The notes under the pieces were generated by a model. The model was not told the origin of the DNA. It made no database searches and was given only the letters and a program-made list of their open reading frames with translations. Position numbers and translations under genes: made by a program. Below are positions 29,089 through 59,354 of a DNA stretch of 64,000 bases, in pieces (position 1 is the stretch's first letter; every line of letters starts with the position of its first letter). This stretch comes from Nocardiopsis sp. JB363 (GTDB lineage: Bacteria; Actinomycetota; Actinomycetes; Streptosporangiales; Streptosporangiaceae). Location of the stretch: contig NZ_FRFF01000072.1 of the NCBI RefSeq assembly GCF_900143625.1, forward strand, positions 1 to 64,000, written 5' to 3'.

Positions 29089-30225
29089 TCAGACGAACTC
29101 GGGTGTCCCGGCGGGCATCGTAAATCGGAACTCTGCGCCACCGTTGGGGGCGCGGCCGACGGTGATCGTGCCGCCGTGGGCCTCGACGAGGCCCTTGACG
29201 ATGAACAGTCCGAGTCCTGTTCCACCACGGCGCTTGCTACGCCAGAACTGGCGGAAGACGCGCGGAATGGTCTCGGGCGCTATGCCCTGGCCTTCGTCGC
29301 GCACCGACACCGCTGCTCCTCCTTCACACGGCTCGATCACGATACTGACAGTACCAGCGCCGTGCCGTACCCCGTTTTCCACGAGGTTGGTGAGGATCTG
29401 TTCGAGCTTGTCGGGGTCCAGCCACATCTGGGGCATGTCCCCGTGCGTCTCGACCCGGAAGCGCTCCTCCGACTCACCGGAGGCGACCCGTCCGGAGACC
29501 ACCCGACGGACGGCCTCGGACAGGTCGACGACCTGGCGTCGCACTTCCAGGCGTCCCGACTCGATCCGGGAGACGTCCAAGAGGTCGTGGATGAGGCGGG
29601 TGACGCGGTCGGCGTCGGCGTTGACGGTCTCCAACATGAACAGCTTCTGTTTGTCGGTGAGCCGTTCCCATTTGGTGAGGAGGGTGGAGGTGAAGCCCTT
29701 GACGCTGGTCAGGGGGGACCGTAGTTCGTGGGCGACCTCGGAGACCAGGTCCGCGCGGGAGCGCTCGGCTCGCGCGGAGGCGTCTCGGAGGCTGACGACC
29801 AGGCGAACGAGGTCGCCGCCGGGGCGGGCGCGCACGTAGCGGGCCGCGACGAGGACCTCGCGTTCGTCGGGCAGACACAGGACCCGTTCGATCTGACGGG
29901 TGCGGTCGCGGTCACCGCCGTAGGGGGCGCTGGCCTCCCACCAGTCGTGTCCGTCCAGCCCGCGCAGGGGCAGGGCGGTGCGGTAGTCGCGGCCGAGCGC
30001 GGATGTGGTGGGGACGCCGACGAGGTGGGCGGCCTGGGTGTTGAACAGGACGACACGGCCGCGCGCGTCGGCGACGACGACGCCGTCGGGCAGGTCGTCG
30101 GCGTGCAACGGGATGCCGCCGGTCGCGACGATGTCGAGGTCGGAGGTGACGGGTTCGTCCGCCGGTTGCGCCGCCGCGCCGTCGGAGTCCTCCGCCGGTC
30201 GATCCACCTGCCGGCCGCTGCCCAC
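29089..30225 (-). CDS. PAS-domain sensor histidine kinase
   Basis: A soluble histidine kinase of about 378 residues: a PAS domain (LPDGVVVADARGRVVLFN and on), the His box SEVAHELRSPLTSVKGF, and HATPase motifs with NLVENGVRHG, RDEGQGIAPE, GGTGLGLFIVKGLVEAHGG. No transmembrane helix and no response regulator nearby, so the partner is unknown. GTG 30225 is chosen because GGGAGAGG precedes it; the frame is open for another 66 codons upstream. In Streptomyces a kinase of this kind also sits between trmH and pheS. Confidence 0.86.
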   Translation of the reverse strand: MGSGRQVDRPAEDSDGAAAQPADEPVTSDLDIVATGGIPLHADDLPDGVVVADARGRVVLFNTQAAHLVGVPTTSALGRDYRTALPLRGLDGHDWWEASAPYGGDRDRTRQIERVLCLPDEREVLVAARYVRARPGGDLVRLVVSLRDASARAERSRADLVSEVAHELRSPLTSVKGFTSTLLTKWERLTDKQKLFMLETVNADADRVTRLIHDLLDVSRIESGRLEVRRQVVDLSEAVRRVVSGRVASGESEERFRVETHGDMPQMWLDPDKLEQILTNLVENGVRHGAGTVSIVIEPCEGGAAVSVRDEGQGIAPETIPRVFRQFWRSKRRGGTGLGLFIVKGLVEAHGGTITVGRAPNGGAEFRFTMPAGTPEFV

Positions 30226-50380: not shown

Positions 50381-50408
50381 GCCCCGTCCCCGTACATGAG
50401 GACGGGGC
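50381..50408 (+). terminator. Terminator of the zinc finger gene
   Basis: A perfect 9-bp stem (50381-50389 with 50400-50408), 17 bp past the stop. Confidence 0.65.
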
Positions 50409-50461
50409 GGTGCGCTGAGGTCGATCCCCGCACACCGCCCCGTGAAGAGCCCTGAGTCGCT

Positions 50462-51210
50462 CTACTCGACCTTCGCGGCCTTCTTCTCGGCCTTCTCCGC
50501 CTCCGGGTCCACGTCCACCCCGGCCTCGGCCCGTTCGGTGTAGGCGTAACCGTCAGCGCGTTGAAGCAACCGAACATGCCGGTGGTGCACGCCTTGAACC
50601 ACCGTTCGACCGCTACGGATGTTGAACTTTCCACTGGCCCTGACCGCGACCCTGCCCACGTGAGTGCCCACCTTCTTGCCACGGGGGACGACGGCCCTGA
50701 CGAAGTCCCCCGTAGCGAAGCCGAAGAAGCGCTTCTGCCTGGGCATGAGCAGCCGAGGAAACCCATACCGGTCGCTCCTGGTTCGGGCATGGCTACCTCG
50801 ACCCGTGCACTCCGCGATCAGGACGGTGGACACGACCTCCCTGACCCCACTCGGCTCACCAAGGGCCAACGCATCCAGTGTGTGCGATTTGGGAAGTCCC
50901 CACCTGTGTCGATTCCACTTCGTGCGGCCACCTGAAGACACACTGGTAGGAAAACCATCCCGCAGCCTCCGCAACAGAGCCCACCTTGTGGACTGGACCA
51001 CCGCCGCGTCCCGAAGCGGCGCCCTCACCTGGGACAGAACCTTGGCAAGAGTCCGTGGTCTTCCCTGAAGGAATTCCTGAAGAGAGCGTGAGTCCTTATC
51101 CTGATTGCAGGGTCCACATGCGATGACCAGGTTCGACAACCGATCCGAGCCGCCTCTGCCACGGGGATGGATGTGGTCGATGTTCAACGGAACACCCGTC
51201 ACGCCACAGT
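50462..51210 (-). pseudogene. iscB: IscB RNA-guided nuclease, 3' part (split by IS)
   Basis: The C-terminal half of IscB, an ancestor-like relative of Cas9. From the insertion point it reads GVTGVPLNIDHIHPRGRGGSDRLSNLVIACGPCNQDKDSR (HNH domain with the DHIHP site), then the RuvC-III segment LPKSHTLDALALGE with its conserved His and Asp, and the C-terminal target-recognition part (YGFPRLLMPRQKRFFGFATGDFVRAVV) with a Lys/Glu-rich end. The 5' half lies at 52196-52799. Joining the halves across one copy of the 3-bp duplication restores a continuous frame. No stop or frameshift other than the insertion is seen. Confidence 0.87.
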
Positions 51211-52195
51211 GAGGTGATCTCAGCGATTTTGCTTCTCGATATTTGTCAGAGCCAACGCCGCTTGCACGATCGAGCCGATCTTGGATGGGCTCATCGTGGT
51301 GTGGCGCAGCACTCTCCATCGGCCGGTAAGCACGGCCATCGCGCGCTCGCCGATGCACCGCAGACCGCGTAGGAGCCGGTTGTGGGCCCGGTCATCGACA
51401 TGCCATCGGTGCTCGTCGACCTGGGGCGGACGCTTGATCGGGGTGCGCACACCCACTCCGGCGCCCTCGTAGCCAGAATCGGCCAGCGTCACCACCCCGC
51501 CGGCCATGGCCTTGTGCAAAAGCGGGAACACGTGCAGGCGGGCGGCGGTGATGTCAGCTGTGGATCCGGGCTCGACCTCAGACACCCACAAAGGTTCTCC
51601 GCGAGCGTCGGACAGGAACTGGATGTTGCCGCCGTGGCGGTGTTTGTGGCCGCTGTACCAAAGGTCGCTTTTGCCGGTGGGGCCCGGCTCCGCGCTACGG
51701 TCGGAAGGAAATAGTTTTCCGTCCAGGATCAGAGGGTCCTGCGGAACCAGACGGGCGTGTTCGAGCACTTCGTACAGGTCGGGGGCTTGGTCGGCCAGCA
51801 CGTCGACACCCTCGTCGATGTAGCGGTAGCCGGTGGCCCGGGAGATGTGGTTGTCCCTGGCCAGCGCTTCGATGGCCGTGTCATCGCGAAACCACCGCAA
51901 GATCAGGACCGCCTGTTTGTAGCAGGTCAGGGAGCGGGTTCCCGTGCGGGTGCCGCGGCGCCGGCGTTCGGCGTTCAGCAGAGCCGAAAGATGCCAAACG
52001 GTGGCCTGGTCCACGTCGAGGGTGGCAGTATAGGGAACCACGTGGAGCCTTTCATGGTGGTCCGGTGCAGATTCGACACCTCGCCTTCTACCTGGGGCTC
52101 CACGTCTGTGTCAGGGGAACGGAAGTTCACCCATGAATGCACTTCTCGTCTTGATTGTCCATTTCCTGCCGATTCCCAGTTACTGAGATCACCTC
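51211..52195 (-). mobile_element. IS5-family insertion sequence (ISL2-like), 985 bp, inside iscB
   Basis: Ends are inverted repeats: GAGGTGATCTCAG at 51211-51223 and its complement CTGAGATCACCTC at 52183-52195. Both sides carry AGT (51208-51210 and 52196-52198), a 3-bp target duplication of the form ANT/ANT complement typical of the ISL2 group. The single transposase gene fills most of the element and its stop codon lies inside one terminal repeat. Removing the IS with one AGT rebuilds Ala-Tyr-Cys-Gly of the IscB HNH region. Confidence 0.9.
51220..52041 (-). CDS. IS5-family DDE transposase
   Basis: A 273-residue transposase with an N-terminal helix-turn-helix (TAIEALARDNHISRATGYRYIDEG) and a DDE core: first Asp in PLILDGKLFPSDR, second in VTLADSGYEGAG, Glu in GERAMAVLTGRW. 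It appears intact, without frameshift. The likely start is the GTG at 52041. The frame is the same direction as the interrupted iscB. Confidence 0.9.
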   Translation of the reverse strand: MVPYTATLDVDQATVWHLSALLNAERRRRGTRTGTRSLTCYKQAVLILRWFRDDTAIEALARDNHISRATGYRYIDEGVDVLADQAPDLYEVLEHARLVPQDPLILDGKLFPSDRSAEPGPTGKSDLWYSGHKHRHGGNIQFLSDARGEPLWVSEVEPGSTADITAARLHVFPLLHKAMAGGVVTLADSGYEGAGVGVRTPIKRPPQVDEHRWHVDDRAHNRLLRGLRCIGERAMAVLTGRWRVLRHTTMSPSKIGSIVQAALALTNIEKQNR

Positions 52196-52799
52196 AGTAG
52201 GCACAGCTTCGATCCCACTTGGCCAGAAGATACTCGCGCGCCTCGAACCCATACAGCGTTCCGCGCTGGTACTCGACACCTTCCAAGGGCCGCCCCGCGG
52301 ACAGAGCATGAGTGTCGAACCGCGCCAACTCCATGTGGACCGTCCTCACCGGCACCCATCGAGCTATCCGCTCCACCCAACTCGCCACACTCTCCACCTG
52401 ATGCCGGAGCGAGGGCGGGAGCCAGCCACGCGCCCGACGCCTGTTGTGGAATCGAGGCCCTCGGTAGCGCAGGTTCCGGCTGCGCCTCGCTCTTCGCAGG
52501 CTGGAGCGTCGCTCCATCTTCTGGCGGATCCACCTGCCTCTATGCTCGATCACGAGGGCGAACCGGCTATGCCTCACACCGGAGCGTGCAGCGAATACCG
52601 CGATCCCCGTGTGTTTGGATCCAGGATCGACTCCGACCTCACAACCCTCCACTTCGGACTCGGCGAGTTCACGGTCCTTGAGCCGGATGACGAATGGTGT
52701 TCGTCGATGCACGACCGCCCGTCCGGCCTTGAGCAACTTTCTGGCCCGGGCCGGACGGCACGGATCCAACGGGCGTCCATGTCTGTCGATCACGAACAC
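52196..52799 (-). pseudogene. iscB: IscB RNA-guided nuclease, 5' part (split by IS)
   Basis: The N-terminal half of IscB: the PLMP-like domain (VFVIDRHGRPLDPCRPARARKLLKAGRAVV), RuvC-I GVDPGSKHTGIAV with the catalytic Asp, the Arg-rich bridge helix (RRSSLRRARRSRNLRYRGPRF), RuvC-II VHMELARFDTH with Glu, and the first HNH Cys in WDRSCAY. The frame then runs into the IS and stops. GTG 52799 is the best start, as IscB usually begins just before this VFV(I/L)D segment; the frame is open to 53039 but that part looks like guide-RNA DNA. Together with the 3' part a product of about 449 residues is restored. Confidence 0.85.
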
Positions 52800-53055
52800 G
52801 GAAGGGTGCACCTCACGGTGCTTCTCCCCGACCTCGATGAAGTCAGGGGTAACGCCGGCACCGCCAGGTGCGGCGGCTCCGGTCTCACCTCGCACATGTC
52901 CCGCAACGGCTGCCGTGGAGTGGCCTCCGAACCCCGTTTCGTCCCTGATCCCGGGGGTGTCTACTGATTCGGATTCCAGAGCAGGCCGCTGGTGAAGCAC
53001 GGCCTGGTGGGTCTTCCCACCTTTACGGAACGTAGCCAATATCAGTCACCTCTGA
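52800..53055 (-). ncRNA. Candidate omega RNA of IscB
   Basis: IscB guide RNAs are encoded just upstream of, and reading towards, iscB. This stretch holds several stable hairpins on the minus strand, such as GGTGGG-AAGA-CCCACC (about 53017-53032), AGGCCG with CGGCCT just after it, and a CCCCG/CGGGG pair near 52935. The guide would be at the 5' end, near or past 53055. Its boundaries are inference. Confidence 0.45.
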
Positions 53056-53118
53056 ACTCGTATCGGCTTGTGCTGGTAACGGCGGCCCCGGCCCCTTGGG
53101 ACGTGAAGCTTCCACCCA

Positions 53119-53448
53119 TCAGGCGGAGGATCCCGCTACGTAAGGCGTCTCGATGCGCGTTTCCGTCCGGAAGACACGGGTTTCACGGTTGGCCACACTG
53201 GAGCCGTCCCACAACAGCAACTCCTCGCGATGGCACACGAGCTCCTCGCCCTCCTCACCGAGCTCGACGTGACTGGAGCTGTACAGTCCCAGTTCGTAGC
53301 CCCTGGACAGTTCCTCGATCGTCCACCGGTAGAGCCCGCTGCCAGAGGGGATCTCCCCTTTCAGGTGATGGGTCACCAGGGTGAGGAAGGTAGGGGCTTC
53401 CTTCGGTTTCGGTGAGGCCCAGACGGCAGAGAGCAGGTAAGCATCCAC
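53119..53448 (-). CDS. Hypothetical protein
   Basis: A 109-residue acidic soluble protein starting MDAYLLSAVWASPKPKEAP, with GLYRWTIEELSRGYELGLYSS in the middle. The GTG start follows GAGGAG by 7 bp, which supports it as real. No motif or family is recognised. It is divergent from the XRE gene and shares a region with two palindromes. Confidence 0.55.
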   Translation of the reverse strand: MDAYLLSAVWASPKPKEAPTFLTLVTHHLKGEIPSGSGLYRWTIEELSRGYELGLYSSSHVELGEEGEELVCHREELLLWDGSSVANRETRVFRTETRIETPYVAGSSA

Positions 53449-53489
53449 GAAGTCACTCCTCTTAGCAGCTCCAGGATCTTACGGTAACA

Positions 53490-53526
53490 TGGATTAATCC
53501 ACCTAGTTGGAATATCTGATAGATAT
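53490..53526 (+). promoter_or_regulatory. Two palindromes between the divergent genes
   Basis: TGGATTAATCCA (53490-53501) is a perfect 12-bp palindrome and ATATCTGATAGATAT (53512-53526) a perfect 6-3-6 one, in an A/T-rich stretch 37-73 bp before the XRE gene. They are likely operators for that XRE protein. Confidence 0.5.
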
Positions 53527-53562
53527 GATTCAATCCGGCTCACACGATGCGCGGGGAGTTCG

Positions 53563-54399
53563 ATGGCTCAGGTGAACATCCGGCGGCACCGGCTCGGCCG
53601 CAAGCTCGCTGAGATCCGCAAACAGGCGGGATTCACACAGGCCCAGGTGGCCGACCACCTGGAGACCCTCCAAGGGTCCTTCGCACGCTACGAACGAGGC
53701 GAGCGCATCCCCAAGCGCGCGGTGCTTCACCAGCTCTTCAAGATCTACGAGGCCTCAGATGACGTTCGGCAGGAGGTCATGTCACTCTTCCGTCTCGCGG
53801 AACAGCCGAGTTGGTGGCATCCCTACCGCGATCTCCTACAGCCCGAATACGCGGCCCTGTTGGACCTGGAAGTGGACGCCTCGGAGATCCGGACCTATCA
53901 GGTGATCGTCCCGGGGCTCTTGCAAACCCCCGAGTACACGCGTCAGATCCTGCTGTACGGCCCGCAGGAGCTCGACGACGAAGAGGTCGAGCGGCGCCTT
54001 GAACTGCGCATGGCACGGCGGCAGATCCTCTCCCATGAGGCAAGCCCTCGTCTCCTGGCCCTCATGGACGAGGGCGCACTACGCCGAATCGTGGGAAACG
54101 AACAGGTGATGCGGGAACAGGTCCAGCACCTTCTGAACGTCTCAGGCCAAGCACAGACCTCGGTACAGATCGTGCCGTTCTCCGCAGGCGCCCACCCGGC
54201 CGCGGTAGGGGGCCTGACCCTGCTCGACTGTGACGATCGTCGAGTGGTCTACGTGGAGACCACCGTGGGTGAGCTGTTCTTGGACAAACCCACCGAGGTC
54301 ACCACCTCCGCTCGTGCTTTCGAGAGCCTGCTGGGCTTCGCGTTGAGTGTGAAAGAATCCCGTGAGCTGATGGAGAAGTACGTCGAGGAGTACTCGTGA
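53563..54399 (+). CDS. XRE-family regulator with DUF5753
   Basis: A 278-residue protein: an N-terminal HTH (LGRKLAEIRKQAGFTQAQVADHLETLQGSFARYERGER) and a C-terminal DUF5753 domain (WWHPYRDLLQPEYAALLDLEVDASEIRTYQVIVPGLLQTPEYTR). This pairs with the DUF397 gene that overlaps its end by 4 bp (GTGA). Such pairs are abundant in actinobacteria and regulate development or act like toxin-antitoxin-type modules. It may control neighbouring accessory genes; that is inference. Confidence 0.9.
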   Translation: MAQVNIRRHRLGRKLAEIRKQAGFTQAQVADHLETLQGSFARYERGERIPKRAVLHQLFKIYEASDDVRQEVMSLFRLAEQPSWWHPYRDLLQPEYAALLDLEVDASEIRTYQVIVPGLLQTPEYTRQILLYGPQELDDEEVERRLELRMARRQILSHEASPRLLALMDEGALRRIVGNEQVMREQVQHLLNVSGQAQTSVQIVPFSAGAHPAAVGGLTLLDCDDRRVVYVETTVGELFLDKPTEVTTSARAFESLLGFALSVKESRELMEKYVEEYS

Positions 54400-54602
54400 G
54401 GATCAAATCGAGCTTCAGCGGGCAGAAGGGGGAGTGCGTGGAGGTGGAGCAGGTCGGCGACGAGTTTCACGTCACGGACAGCAAGCACCCCGAACGTCCC
54501 GCCCACGTGTACACCCGTGGGGAGTGGCGTGCGTTCCTCCAGGGTGCACGTAACGGCGAGTTCGACTTCGACGTGTTCGATGTAGAGGGCGTCCAGGCCT
54601 GA
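54396..54602 (+). CDS. DUF397 protein
   Basis: A 68-residue DUF397 protein, with the typical SSFSGQKGECVEVEQVGDEFHVTDSKHPERP and a final GEWRAFLQGARNGEFD. It starts at a GTG overlapping the XRE stop. DUF397 partners bind and modulate their XRE regulators. Confidence 0.9.
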   Translation: MRIKSSFSGQKGECVEVEQVGDEFHVTDSKHPERPAHVYTRGEWRAFLQGARNGEFDFDVFDVEGVQA

Positions 54603-54617
54603 CATCCGGACCGAACG

Positions 54618-54647
54618 GGGCGGGGCATCCGAATCGGTGCCCCGCCC
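54618..54647. terminator. Bidirectional terminator
   Basis: A perfect 10-bp stem (54618-54627 with 54638-54647) between the convergent DUF397 and CmoA-like genes, close to both stops. It can serve both strands. Confidence 0.75.
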
Positions 54648-54651
54648 TCGT

Positions 54652-55380
54652 CTATCTCACCGCGAGGTAGACGACGAAGTTGTACCAGCGGAACACCTCA
54701 TCCACCCGAGAGAACCCCGCCTTGAGCAGTGCGTCACGATTCTCCGAGACACGGTACGGAACGAGGACGTTCTCCAGGGCTTCCCGCTTCTTCGCGATCT
54801 CGGTCCGGGAGTAGCCGCTGCGCTCCTTGTAGTCGTGGTAGAGGTCGATGTAGACCCGGGAGAGGTCGTTGTCGTCTCCAAGCACCTTCTCCCCCAGCAG
54901 CAACGCCCCGCCTGGTTCGATGGACGCACAGATCTTCGCCAGGACCGCGTCGCGCTGAGGCGGTCGAACGAATTGCAGGGTGAAGAGCATGATGACGACT
55001 CGTGCACCGGGGAGATCCGGCAGACATTCCACCGAATCCTCAAGGATGTCGACCTCGTGGCCGAGACCCTCCGCTCGAATCTTCTCCCGACACCGTGCCC
55101 GCATCGCGGCCGAAGGCTCCACACCCACGAACTTCACCCGGGTCTTCGGAGAGATCGCCTTCATCAGTCGGACCAACGTGTTCCCCGTGGAGGAACCCAC
55201 GTCGTAGACGGTCCCACCCTCCTCTTCGAGGAAGCTTCGACTGAGTTCGACGGACATCCTCTGGATCTCGTCGTAGAACGGGATGCTGCGGTCCAGCATG
55301 TCGTCGAAGACGTCCGCCACACCCTCATCGAAGACGAAGTCGCCCACCTGGGTCCTGTCCACGAAGATCTCGTCACGCAT
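54652..55380 (-). CDS. CmoA-like carboxy-S-adenosylmethionine synthase
   Basis: A 242-residue class I methyltransferase-fold protein that follows E. coli CmoA along its length: DFVFDEGVADVFDDMLDRSIPFY, the SAM loop VYDVGSSTGNTL, IMLFTLQFVRPPQR, PGGALLLGEK, and the KREALENVL segment with Arg199, part of the CmoA site that binds the prephenate-derived carboxylate. CmoA turns SAM and prephenate into carboxy-SAM, used for wobble uridine modification in proteobacteria. Here no CmoB is near; instead it overlaps the MccB-methyltransferase gene by 8 bp. In Bacillus and Yersinia microcin C-like clusters, carboxy-SAM feeds carboxymethylation of cytosine. That role is proposed here. Confidence 0.85.
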   Translation of the reverse strand: MRDEIFVDRTQVGDFVFDEGVADVFDDMLDRSIPFYDEIQRMSVELSRSFLEEEGGTVYDVGSSTGNTLVRLMKAISPKTRVKFVGVEPSAAMRARCREKIRAEGLGHEVDILEDSVECLPDLPGARVVIMLFTLQFVRPPQRDAVLAKICASIEPGGALLLGEKVLGDDNDLSRVYIDLYHDYKERSGYSRTEIAKKREALENVLVPYRVSENRDALLKAGFSRVDEVFRWYNFVVYLAVR

Positions 55381-57196
55381 CGAGACTCCTCTCCAAGACC
55401 ATGACCAGGAAGTAGGGGATGCGGCTCGACTTGTCGAAGATGACGGGATCTCGTTCCGCGATCAGCTCGTCGGGCTCTGGTTCCAGCACTCGACGCACGA
55501 GAAACCCCTGGCCGATGAACTCTTCGAAGTACCTGGACATCGTCCTGTGGTGGGTTCGAATCCCTCGGATCCTGACCTCGCCGTGCCGGTCCTCTCGATC
55601 CTTCAGGCATTCCCCCTCGACGAAGTAGTCATCGAGGACGTAGTGCCGGTACTCCCACCCTTGTGGGCCGGGAACCTTGTACCAACCGCCGCGATCCTTC
55701 ATCGGGTGTGGGAGCGACAGCACGAGACGGCCCCCGGGTTTGAGCGCCGAGTGAAGACTCCGAACACTGGCCGACAAGTCGGCGATGTGGTCCAGGACGT
55801 TGAGGCAACAAATAGTGTCGTAGCGTCCTTCAGCCTCGGTGAGGGCCTCCAGACCGGCACGATGCACCTCAACGCGCTTCTCCCACCCCTGGACACGGTC
55901 ACGAAGGATCCGCTCCATCGCCCCATCTGGCTCATAAGCGTCAACGTTCGCTCCCAGGGCCACGAGTCGATCCGTGACCTGCCCGGAGCCCGCACCTACG
56001 TCTGCCACCCTTTGCCCCTGGATCGACCCCACGAGTTCGGGAACGAGAGGATCGAGCAGAACCGCGTTGAAGGAATGCACTTCGCGTTCCTCCGCGTACT
56101 GAGCCGCGATGCCCTCCCAATCCGCCTTCGTGCTCTCTCCACATACGGAACAGCCGGCGTCGCGCTGACGAAACTCCTCCCAGGTGGTGTCGTACGAACG
56201 GGAGTCAATGAGCATCCGGCGTCCTTCCGTCACCGCGGGGAGCCCCAAGAGCCACCGGATCGCCTCATTGGCCTGTACCGATGCCACCAGAGCGTTCAGG
56301 GGTCCAAAACTCGGGGCCTGCCAGTGAGGGTTCAGCTCAACGTCGAGTGTTGGCTGCACGGAAACGCTGTCGCCTGTGTTCTCCTCCGTCTCCGGAAGAC
56401 TCTCGGCCTGCTCTTGGCTGCAAGGGAAACAAGGTGTCCTCGGTGGCAGAAGCAAGGGCCCCACACTGCCGTGCCCCTCGATGTATCCCGAGGCACTGAA
56501 CGGGATCCCCCGGCTCTGACAGGCGCGACCGGTCCAGAGGTGAACGTCGGCCGGACGGTCGGCGGACAGTAGAACGATGTCCGATCGCGCGGCCACCCGC
56601 CCCGCCAGATCGGAAGAAGTGAACGATTCGGGGATCGTGACCACTTCCAGGTCCGAACGGAGTTCGAGCAGTCTTTCCGCCGCGACGTCGACCTTGAGTC
56701 GGCCGACGTCCTTCTCCTTGAAGAGCGTTTGCCGGGTGAGGTTGGACAGCTCCACCACGTCACCGTCCGACATCACCAGACGTCCGACCCCGGCGGCGGC
56801 CAGATGCGTCGCCACATGGGTGCCGATTCCACCCATACCCACCAGACCCACCGTGACCTCGGAGAGCCGCTCCTGCGCGCCCTCGTCGACCCCCATGAGC
56901 TGAAAGAAAAGACCGTGGCGGTCGTACCGGCCACGGTCTTCGGGTGCGGGGACAAGGACACGGGCCTGTTCCAGGTCAGCGATCATCGCTGTGCATTCGG
57001 CCCGTGTCCAGCCGGAAAGCTCGGCTGCCGCCTCTACCAGTCCTTCACGTTCCCTTGGCCGAATACAGCCTTGGAGCAACGGAATGAGGAACTCGGGTGG
57101 TTCCTCAAGGTGCCACGCGTTCGGTGGAAGGGTCCCTATGCGGAGACCACCATCGGTTCGACGAATCGAGAGGTAGGGCGGCAGCCAAAGCTTCAT
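55373..57196 (-). CDS. MccB-type peptide adenylyltransferase fused to a SAM methyltransferase
   Basis: A 607-residue fusion. Residues 1-85 match the MccB peptide-clamp region; 86-355 are an E1-like (ThiF) domain with GRYDRHGLFFQ, the ATP loop GMGGIGTH (120-127), NLTRQTLFKEKDVGRLK (152-168), SADRP, and two zinc Cys pairs (256/259 and 349/352). These follow E. coli MccB motif by motif; MccB joins a nucleotide to the C-terminal Asn of a small peptide. Residues about 356-607 form a class I methyltransferase (VADVGAGSGQ at 397-406, PGGRLVLSLPHP), probably the carboxymethyltransferase using carboxy-SAM. The ATG directly follows the aspS stop with no gap. Confidence 0.88.
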   Translation of the reverse strand: MKLWLPPYLSIRRTDGGLRIGTLPPNAWHLEEPPEFLIPLLQGCIRPREREGLVEAAAELSGWTRAECTAMIADLEQARVLVPAPEDRGRYDRHGLFFQLMGVDEGAQERLSEVTVGLVGMGGIGTHVATHLAAAGVGRLVMSDGDVVELSNLTRQTLFKEKDVGRLKVDVAAERLLELRSDLEVVTIPESFTSSDLAGRVAARSDIVLLSADRPADVHLWTGRACQSRGIPFSASGYIEGHGSVGPLLLPPRTPCFPCSQEQAESLPETEENTGDSVSVQPTLDVELNPHWQAPSFGPLNALVASVQANEAIRWLLGLPAVTEGRRMLIDSRSYDTTWEEFRQRDAGCSVCGESTKADWEGIAAQYAEEREVHSFNAVLLDPLVPELVGSIQGQRVADVGAGSGQVTDRLVALGANVDAYEPDGAMERILRDRVQGWEKRVEVHRAGLEALTEAEGRYDTICCLNVLDHIADLSASVRSLHSALKPGGRLVLSLPHPMKDRGGWYKVPGPQGWEYRHYVLDDYFVEGECLKDREDRHGEVRIRGIRTHHRTMSRYFEEFIGQGFLVRRVLEPEPDELIAERDPVIFDKSSRIPYFLVMVLERSLDA

Positions 57197-58969
57197 CTAG
57201 CTCCTTTTTTTGTCTCCCTGAGGGATGACCGTTCGGATGTGCACGTCACTCAGCTGCTTCTCAGAGACGGCCGCGGGGGCACCCATCATGAGGTCCTGGG
57301 CGTTCTGGTTGAGCGGGAAGGCGATGGTTTCGCGGATGTTGGGCTCATCGGCCAGCAACATGACGATCCGGTCGATGCCAGGAGCGATGCCACCGTGAGG
57401 CGGAGCACCGAACTTCAGGGCCTTGAGCATGCCGCCGAACTCGGCTTCGACGGCGTCCTTGTCGTAGCCGGCGATCTCGAAGGCCTCGTACATGATCTCG
57501 GGCGAGTGGTTCCGGATCGCGCCGGAAGACAACTCCACACCGTTGCAGACGATGTCGTACTGCCAGGCCAGAATGTCCAGAGGGTCCTTGTTGAGCAACG
57601 CGTCCATCCCGCCCTGCGGCATGGAGAACGGGTTGTGGCTGAACTCGATGTCGCCCTCGTCGGAACGCTCGAACATCGGGAAGTCCACGATCCAGCAGAA
57701 GCGGTAGACCTTCTCCTCCGCCAGGCCCGCGCGCTTACCGGCCTCGACACGGACCGGGGCCATGATCCGGTTGATCTCGGCCTCGTCCTCACTGGCACAG
57801 AAGAACAGGCCATAACCGGGACCGGCGCCGAGGGTGGTCAACAGCTCGTCAGAGATTTCGGTGACGAACTTGGCAATGGGACCGGTGAGTTCGTTGTTCT
57901 CCCCGACCTTGAGCCAGGCCAGTCCCTTGGCGCCCTGTTCGACGGCGAAGTCGCCGATGCCGTCGTAGAACTTGCGCGGCTGCCCGCCCACGTTCGGCAC
58001 GGCCAAGGCGCGGACCTTCTTACCGGCGAAGGCGCGGAAGTCGGTCTTGTCGAACAGCGCGGTGACGTCGAGCATCTTCATCGGTACTCGCAGGTCCGGC
58101 TTGTCGGTGCCGTACCACTCCAGGGCGTCCCGGTAGGCGATGCGCGGGTAGGGAGAGGTGATCTCCCAACCGGTGGAGAACTCGCGGAAGACGTCGGTCA
58201 TGACCTTCTCGATGACCTCGAAGACGTCCTCCTGCTCGACGAAGCTCATCTCGACATCGAGCTGGTAGAACTCACCGGGCGAACGGTCCGCGCGGCTGTC
58301 CTCGTCCCGGAAGCAGGGGGCGATCTGGAAGTACCGGTCGAACCCGGCGATCATGAGGAGCTGCTTGAACTGCTGCGGCGCTTGGGGCAGGGCGAAGAAC
58401 TCGCCGGGGTGCAGGCGCGAGGGGACCAGGAAGTCGCGAGCACCCTCAGGGCTGGAGCTGGTGAGGATCGGGGTCTGGAACTCATTGAAGCCCAGGTCCG
58501 TCATCTTCTTACGGATGGCGGCCACGACCTGCGAACGCAGCATGACGTTGCGGTGCATCCGCTCACGACGCAGGTCCAGGAAGCGGTAGGTCAGGCGACG
58601 CTCTTCGGAGGTGTTGTCCTCGGGGAAGACCGTGAGGGGAAGCTCCTCGGTCGTTCCAAGGATCTCCACCTCCGCCGCCTCGATCTCGATCTCACCGGTG
58701 GGCAGGTTCGGGTTGATGTTCCCGGCGCTACGCGCAGAGACCTCGCCCGTGACCTGAATCACCGATTCCTTGGAGATTCGGCTGAGTTCCTCGAACACCG
58801 GGGATTCGGGGCGAGCCATGAGCTGCGTGACGCCGTAGTGGTCGCGCAGGTCGACGAAGAGCAGACCACCGAGATCCCGGCGGTTGTGCACCCAGCCAGA
58901 AAGGCGCACCTGCTGCCCGACGTGCTCCTTACGGAGCTGACCACACGAATGAGTCCTGTAACGATGCAT
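57197..58969 (-). CDS. aspS: Aspartyl-tRNA synthetase
   Basis: A 590-residue bacterial-type AspRS: OB anticodon domain ([26 protein letters not shown]), class II motifs [24 protein letters not shown], the GAD insertion, and the motif 3 region [39 protein letters not shown]. It resembles Streptomyces AspRS, so it may be the only, housekeeping copy. Yet the next gene begins on the base after its stop and a precursor-like gene lies just upstream. Processed microcin C inhibits AspRS, so this enzyme could be the target or a tolerant, self-protecting version. The ribosome site is weak. Confidence 0.95.
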
Positions 58970-59114
58970 GAGTTACCAAGTCCACTAACTACACGGCTGG
59001 GTGAGGATGCCGGGGAGCCCGCGGCCGGGTCCGGCTGAAGGCATGGCATGCCCTTGAACAACTGGGATCCTACCGCCAACCACGCCACCTGGCCTCCTGG
59101 TTCAAGTGGCACAC

Positions 59115-59138
59115 GGACCCCCGAAGGCCCGGGGGTCC
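59115..59138 (-). terminator. Hairpin between the precursor gene and aspS
   Basis: GGACCCCC (59115-59122) pairs with GGGGGTCC (59131-59138), 11 bp past the 21-codon gene. No T-run follows. In the E. coli microcin C operon a stem-loop between mccA and mccB favours precursor transcripts; this may play the same part. Confidence 0.6.
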
Positions 59139-59149
59139 GATCCCGGCCG

Positions 59150-59215
59150 CTAGTTGGCGACCACGGTGGTGCTGCCCTTGACCTTGCGGACCGGGGTCAT
59201 CGAGATACGGCGCAT
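59150..59215 (-). CDS. Microcin C-like precursor peptide, ends in Asn
   Basis: A 21-codon gene: the product starts MRRISM, has the basic core PVRKVKG and ends TTVVAN, followed by TAG. GAGGAG lies 6 bp before the ATG, an excellent ribosome site in a region where nothing else is coded. MccA peptides are short, keep their initiator Met, need no leader removal, and must end in Asn, the residue MccB modifies. Its size, basic character and terminal Asn fit that, and it lies upstream of aspS and the MccB gene on the same strand. It is followed by a hairpin and preceded by a palindrome-rich promoter. Too short for standard gene finders. Confidence 0.72.
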   Translation of the reverse strand: MRRISMTPVRKVKGSTTVVAN

Positions 59216-59266
59216 GCGGCTCTCCTCGGGCTGTATCGAACACCGCCGGGATCGACGGCACTCGAA

Positions 59267-59327
59267 ACGCTACGCCAGCATGCTGGAATATTCCAAGGCT
59301 TGGAAGGAAACCATATCTCTGAAGATA
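59267..59327 (-). promoter_or_regulatory. Palindrome-rich promoter of the precursor gene
   Basis: On the minus strand TTGGAA (59291-59296) and TAGCGT (59267-59272) lie 18 bp apart, giving a start about 45 bp before the ATG. Overlapping perfect palindromes cover it: CCAGCATGCTGG (59275-59286), TGGAATATTCCA (59284-59295) and TTCCAAGGCTTGGAA (59291-59305), plus TATCT/AGATA (59314-59327). One or more regulators probably act here. Confidence 0.55.
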
Positions 59328-59354
59328 GGAAATTCCACGACGCGTAAGACCGGG

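What the first reader, a model, noticed from the sequence alone, without database searches (positions are those of the whole stretch)
50462..53055. An IscB (OMEGA) gene interrupted by a recent IS5-type insertion
Both halves keep all catalytic motifs: RuvC-I Asp, RuvC-II Glu, HNH DHIHP, RuvC-III His/Asp. The 985-bp IS has 13-bp inverted repeats and AGT on both sides. Removing it with one AGT restores the frame exactly (530 codons including stop from 53039). No other damage is visible, so the insertion looks recent and the nuclease was probably functional until then.
Basis: partly seen in the sequence, partly recalled or inferred. Interest (0 to 1): 0.75.

Follow-up and report, generated by a model that had tools for sequence, protein, structure and literature searches.

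The report
Wrecked IscB gene left in aspS
An RNA-guided DNA-cutting gene (iscB, from the family that gave rise to Cas9) in a Nocardiopsis genome has indeed been split by a jumping gene, but it was already the stranded, one-ended remains of a mobile element that had landed in a now mostly deleted tRNA-synthetase gene; three unbroken copies in the same genome make the loss itself ordinary.

Summary
Joining the flanks gives 529 open codons with all catalytic residues, and the omega RNA (Rfam HEARO) lies at 53139-52878.

(1) "No other damage" is wrong: the OMEGA element's right end is gone, and IscB residues 507-529 plus the downstream hairpin are the 3' end of a deleted aspartyl-tRNA synthetase gene (aspS-A). 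(2) The 16-nt guide flank plus ATGA matches aspS-A codons 161-165 in 15 of 16 relatives that have aspS-A, so the element once sat inside aspS-A; a second synthetase, aspS-B, now serves. G034 shares the insertion with a heavily deleted iscB. (3) The 53039 start lies inside the omega RNA. Across actinobacteria that frame is kept open (68/70 loci, 20 lengths) with no amino-acid-level constraint. (4) Three intact paralogues remain in the genome.

"Recent" is compatible (neutral divergence below roughly 2-7%) but unproven; no conspecific strain was available. Known kinds throughout. Bonus: 29 of 32 genus copies sit exactly at an ATG(A) start codon.

The parts
51211..52195 (-). IS5-family, ISL2-type insertion sequence, 985 bp, inside iscB codon 281
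51220..52041 (-). IS transposase ORF, 273 aa (DDE_Tnp_4; NCBIfam transpos_IS5_4 below cut-off)
51208..51210 (.). target duplication AGT, left copy
52196..52198 (.). target duplication AGT, right copy
52199..53039 (-). iscB 5' part, codons 1-281 (RRXRR/PLMP, RuvC-I, bridge helix, RuvC-II); the first 54 codons overlap the omega RNA
50534..51210 (-). iscB 3' part, codons 281-506 (HNH, RuvC-III, TAM-interacting domain)
50462..50533 (-). last 23 codons and stop of the former aspS-A, fused in frame to iscB; replaces the OMEGA right end
50402..50443 (-). terminator-like inverted repeat downstream, shared with aspS-A of relatives
52878..53139 (-). omega RNA scaffold (HEARO, RF02033), 58.8 bits; 53139 is the OMEGA left end
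53140..53155 (-). 16-nt guide (left flank), CATCGAGACGCCTTAC; matches aspS-A codons 161-165 followed by ATGA in relatives
50534..59351 (.). segment that replaces aspS-A relative to the closest relatives (flanks 91-92% identical to G017 and G018)
57197..58969 (-). aspS-B, the AspRS gene left in the genome, 44-45% identical to aspS-A
53119..53448 (-). small ORF upstream of the guide, found only here and in G034 within the genus
55373..57196 (-). ThiF-methyltransferase fusion protein of the same block

Best explanation
This is the remains of an IscB/omega-RNA (OMEGA, HEARO) mobile element. Shown: it has an intact left end, omega RNA and guide; its guide flank matches aspS-A at codons 161-165 before ATGA; and its iscB runs in frame into the last 23 codons of aspS-A. 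Inferred: the element inserted at TAC|ATGA inside aspS-A on a chromosome (or donor segment) that also had aspS-B, so loss of aspS-A was tolerated. Deletion or recombination then removed most of aspS-A and the element's right end and fused iscB to the aspS-A tail, which stranded the element. Later an ISL2-type IS transposed into the HNH CxxC codon and ended the nuclease. While intact, IscB would have bound its own omega RNA and cut DNA carrying guide plus ATGA, i.e. the empty aspS-A site (inferred from characterised IscB/OMEGA enzymes). The omega RNA upstream of the IS is still whole and might load onto one of three intact IscB paralogues (inferred, untested).
For: IscB by profile, by sequence match to solved IscBs, and by predicted fold of a close relative (top hits 8csz, 9k30, 9liq). 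Omega RNA 58.8 bits, within the genus range 30-75. Left end sharp in 38 of 40 aligned genus copies, with mostly unrelated flanks; the full right end is in nearly all of them and absent here. Exact empty site for the paralogue at ruvA: no duplication, right flank starts ATGA. Guide plus ATGA hits aspS-A with 2-4 mismatches in 15 of 16 aspS-A genomes, at least 7 mismatches in all but one aspS-B genome. Tail RAEAGVDVDPEAEKAEK.. equals the aspS-A C-terminus, 91% DNA identity to G017 up to 50533. G034 shares the insertion with a deleted iscB. IS with TSD and perfect TIRs.
Against: Only about 16 nt (24 in G034) of aspS-A remain on the left, so the left side of the insertion rests on a short match; the reversed control pattern gave a similar number of scattered chance hits, though none clustered at one syntenic site. 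No genome with a complete aspS-A::OMEGA insertion was found. The order of right-end loss and IS insertion is not determined. Cleavage activity was not tested.
Confidence: 0.72

Rival explanations
1. One reading: a normal, functional iscB that simply took a recent IS hit, with no earlier history of damage.
For: Open joined frame, catalytic residues kept, perfect TSD and TIRs.
Against: Right end missing and 3' end swapped for the aspS-A tail.
Confidence: 0.1
2. Pseudogene before the IS: a stranded element evolving neutrally, hit by the IS by chance without effect.
For: Right end lost; the orthologue in G034 is heavily deleted; the window copy is the most divergent of the family.
Against: No stop or frameshift in 449 core codons, so little neutral time; codon-position pattern and broken invariants are like those of an uninterrupted divergent paralogue.
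Confidence: 0.3
3. Cleave-and-rescue: the guide of this iscB cut aspS-A chromosomes, and the linked aspS-B, which lacks the site, rescued recipients, so the block homed into aspS loci until the IS killed it.
For: The guide retained is an aspS-A sequence, the block sits at the aspS locus, it carries the remaining aspS, and aspS-A and aspS-B alternate at this locus in the genus.
Against: A guide matching the insertion site is automatic for any OMEGA element; other aspS-B genomes have no iscB there; 2-4 mismatches to present aspS-A sites; the bearer is broken in both genomes that have it.
Confidence: 0.04
4. Split but working: the two halves are expressed separately and reassemble.
For: Both halves open; a GTG at 51358 inside the IS is in frame with the C half.
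Against: The break is inside the HNH zinc knuckle, with one cysteine on each side; no sign of a dedicated start for the C half was seen.
Confidence: 0.03

Closest known systems
IscB OMEGA nucleases (OgeuIscB, TbaIscB, HfmIscB; NCBIfam NF040563, Pfam RRXRR)
   Same: Domain order, catalytic residues, upstream HEARO/omega RNA, variable 5' guide flank, NTGA-like adjacent motif
   Different: Broken by an IS; right end lost; C-terminus grafted from aspS; in this actinobacterial clade the reading frame begins inside the omega RNA
HEARO RNA elements (Rfam RF02033; Nat Commun 2022, PMC9755519)
   Same: HEARO RNA directly upstream of the HNH/RuvC nuclease gene; guide at the 5' end
   Different: That paper describes the RNA as the 5' UTR; here it overlaps the open frame by about 54 codons. 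The original HEARO description was not held, so novelty of the overlap could not be checked
IS5 family, ISL2 group
   Same: About 985 bp, single DDE transposase ORF, short TIRs, 3-bp ANT duplications
   Different: NCBIfam transpos_IS5_4 score 99 is below its cut-off of 140

Membership tests
IscB (RNA-guided OMEGA nuclease) | RRXRR/PLMP plus split RuvC with HNH inserted, profile above cut-off | tested here: met
   N half alone 261 bits against cut-off 175; C half continues the same profile 198-313; HNH in Pfam
IscB (RNA-guided OMEGA nuclease) | Catalytic RuvC D/E/H/D and HNH histidine | tested here: met
   D138, E237, H293, H390, D393; alignment to solved IscBs
IscB (RNA-guided OMEGA nuclease) | Cognate omega RNA upstream with 5' guide | tested here: met
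   HEARO 53139-52878, E 6e-11 in the genome search, below Rfam's gathering score as are the intact genus copies
IscB (RNA-guided OMEGA nuclease) | One uninterrupted gene | tested here: not met
   IS in codon 281
IscB (RNA-guided OMEGA nuclease) | RNA-guided DNA cleavage | not testable with these tools
   needs biochemistry
Mobile OMEGA/HEARO element | Conserved left end with variable flank | tested here: met
   GTAGCGGG at 53139 against consensus GTAA[A/C]GGG
Mobile OMEGA/HEARO element | Conserved right end (hairpin, ..CGATGA) | tested here: not met
   replaced by the aspS-A tail
IS5 family, ISL2 group | DDE transposase, TIRs, 3-bp ANT target duplication | tested here: met
   AGT here, ATT and ACT in relatives; the ANT rule itself is from general knowledge
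IS5 family, ISL2 group | Curated IS5 family profile above cut-off | tested here: inconclusive
   transpos_IS5_4 99.1 bits, cut-off 140

The most novel reading that the evidence does not exclude
The block iscB/omega RNA (guide against aspS-A) plus aspS-B worked as a natural cleave-and-rescue system that converted aspS-A chromosomes to aspS-B at the same locus, and the IS insertion is how it was disarmed.
Probability: 0.04. Interest if true: 0.85.

Novelty: new member of a known kind. Interest (0 to 1): 0.42.

Why it matters
As a broken gene it is ordinary: elements of this clade decay often, and three intact copies remain here. What adds value is the reconstructed history (an OMEGA element inside one of two alternative aspartyl-tRNA synthetase genes) and two clade-level facts met on the way. 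First, the iscB frame starts inside the omega RNA and is kept open without amino-acid constraint, so one stretch of DNA must serve as guide RNA scaffold and as translated leader. Second, the elements sit exactly at ATG(A) start codons of host genes, some essential, which makes directly testable how RNA-guided transposon retention coexists with expression of the gene it sits on.

Tried and rejected
The search for related loci with the window N half alone found nothing; the family alignment found 227 relatives. Omega-RNA decay as the cause of inactivity: rejected, score within the genus range. Conserved leader peptide: rejected, no third-position excess (0.249, 0.255, 0.245; P 0.57) and no excess of synonymous change over the other frames; predicted disorder of residues 1-73 in a relative. 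Downstream start instead of 53039: less likely, only 19 of 68 loci have an SD-preceded downstream start against 64 of 68 at the omega-RNA start. Y1 TnpA as resident mobiliser: only 13 of 40 genomes have one, and G031, which has several full-length iscB copies, has none. The founding HEARO (2009) and OMEGA (2021) papers are not in the library.

Full report
Observation. Joining the flanks in a script with one AGT gives 529 codons without a stop. The N half matches RRXRR and NCBIfam guided_IscB well above cut-off; the C half carries the HNH and the rest of that profile. Solved IscBs align over the RuvC and HNH motifs, and a predicted model of a close relative (L158) finds IscB and IsrB structures first. 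The IS interrupts codon 281, between the two cysteines of the HNH knuckle. It is the only copy in the draft genome, but relatives at 86-91% identity occur in several Nocardiopsis species, six full-length copies in G004, with ATT and ACT duplications in the two examined, so ANT.

What it belongs to. The genome is a Nocardiopsis (genus from named relatives). The same genome holds three other full-length copies with open frames (C143, C162, C123) and a deletion relic (C88); the genus holds many full-length copies and many relics that keep only the two ends. Rfam HEARO, the omega RNA family, matches 53139-52878 on the minus strand with 58.8 bits in the genome search; intact genus copies score mostly 52-75. 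Aligning the copies shows a sharp left end GTAA[A/C]GGG with unrelated sequence upstream, the guide, and a right end made of a hairpin and ..CCAACAAA.CGATGA. For the C123 copy the empty site in five relatives is exact, without duplication, and the right flank begins with the ATGA start of ruvA.

What is different in the window copy. It lacks that right end. From 50533 downwards the sequence is instead the 3' end of an aspartyl-tRNA synthetase gene with its downstream inverted repeat: IscB ends ..RAEAGVDVDPEAEKAEKKAAKVE, and AspRS of G017 ends ..RAEAGVDVDPEAEKAEKAAKAE. In the closest relatives G017 and G018 the DNA is 91-92% identical from 46001 (G018: 46912) to 50533 and again from about 59352 on; between these points they have aspS-A, where the window has iscB, a small ORF, an HTH/DUF397 pair, a methyltransferase, a ThiF-methyltransferase and aspS-B. 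aspS-A is gone from this genome. The genus alternates between the two gene types at this locus, 16 genomes with A and 23 with B.

The guide. The 16 nt left of the element, CATCGAGACGCCTTAC, followed by ATGA, match aspS-A at codons 161-165 (..VETPY|M..) with 2-4 mismatches in 15 of the 16 aspS-A genomes, while aspS-B loci give at least 7 mismatches in all but one. Scattered hits of the same pattern are at chance level (the reversed control gives about as many), but the aspS-A hits all fall on one syntenic codon, in the same orientation and order as the window's guide, element and aspS-A tail. I therefore infer insertion inside aspS-A. G034 shares the left flank and the family-specific omega-RNA differences, and its iscB is mostly deleted, so the insertion is old while the split by the IS is known only from this genome.

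Was it functional? Leave-one-out over 29 copies: the window copy changes 7 of 118 otherwise invariant core residues, against 11 of 122 for the uninterrupted copy L016, none of the window's changes catalytic. Divergence by codon position resembles L016. Point mutations to a stop have probability 0.033 per substitution; absence of any stop or frameshift bounds neutral divergence at 6.7% without indels and 1.7-2.7% with an assumed indel share of 5-10%. So the reading 'nuclease kept until not long ago' is fair, but recency is a bound, not a date.

The start codon. The frame from 53039 begins behind GAGGTGA inside the omega RNA. In 34 genus copies and in 68 of 70 actinobacterial loci where the landmark could be read that frame runs into the IscB domain, with 20 different in-frame lengths from 76 to 116 codons; one of the 68 carries a stop. 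Within codons 1-35 no codon position is more variable than another, the first 73 residues are predicted disordered in a relative, and a downstream SD-preceded start is present in only 19 of 68 loci. My reading is that translation starts inside the omega RNA and the frame is selected, while the RNA dictates the letters. Caveats: the loci were ranked with a query that includes the leader, related copies are not independent, and one order-level locus (L134) has a shifted frame.

Mechanism. By analogy with characterised IscB and IsrB enzymes (NTGA-type motif for DtIsrB, PMC9581776), an intact copy would bind its omega RNA and cut the empty site, guide plus ATGA, helping the element to be kept. In the window copy the protein part is dead because the HNH is split; the omega RNA is upstream of the IS and may still be made. 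Whether paralogous IscBs, 63-65% identical, use it is untested.

Verdict. Observation confirmed; interpretation partly supported. A degraded member of a known family, with a reconstructable and unusual history.

Noticed in passing
L002-L062 (Nocardiopsis OMEGA copies), right ends: 29 of 32 copies end exactly at ATGA/GTGA that opens an ORF of 80 codons or more (MurG, RuvA, FumC, HisA, MenD-like and others by their N-termini; 35% expected from all ATGA sites), and the left flank often holds an SD-like motif: the elements sit between SD and start codon. Copies are not all independent.
   Followed up: partly
L201, L203, L207, L211 and similar actinobacterial loci, right ends: The element's own right end carries an SD-like GGAGG just before the ATGA (ACGCTGGAGGTAATTG|ATGA before unrelated genes), as if it rebuilt the translation start of the host gene.
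   Followed up: no
52878-53039 and homologous loci: The omega RNA doubles as the 5' coding end of iscB across actinobacteria: frame kept open, no amino-acid-level constraint.
   Followed up: yes
57197-58969 and syntenic loci of 39 genomes: Two AspRS genes only 44% identical alternate at the same locus across Nocardiopsis.
   Followed up: partly
54652-57196: A ThiF-methyltransferase fusion and a methyltransferase lie next to aspS-B, here and in G034. A microcin C-like pathway with a tolerant AspRS is one guess; not tested.
   Followed up: no
L021, L023, L044, L045, L060: Internal-deletion derivatives that keep mainly the ends of the OMEGA element, like non-autonomous elements.
   Followed up: no
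genus-wide: Y1 (TnpA) transposase genes are found in only 13 of 40 genomes and are missing from G031, which has several full-length iscB copies, so what moves these elements is open.
   Followed up: no
29468-29564: ARAGORN calls a 97-nt tRNA-Asp (gtc), long for this tRNA.
   Followed up: no
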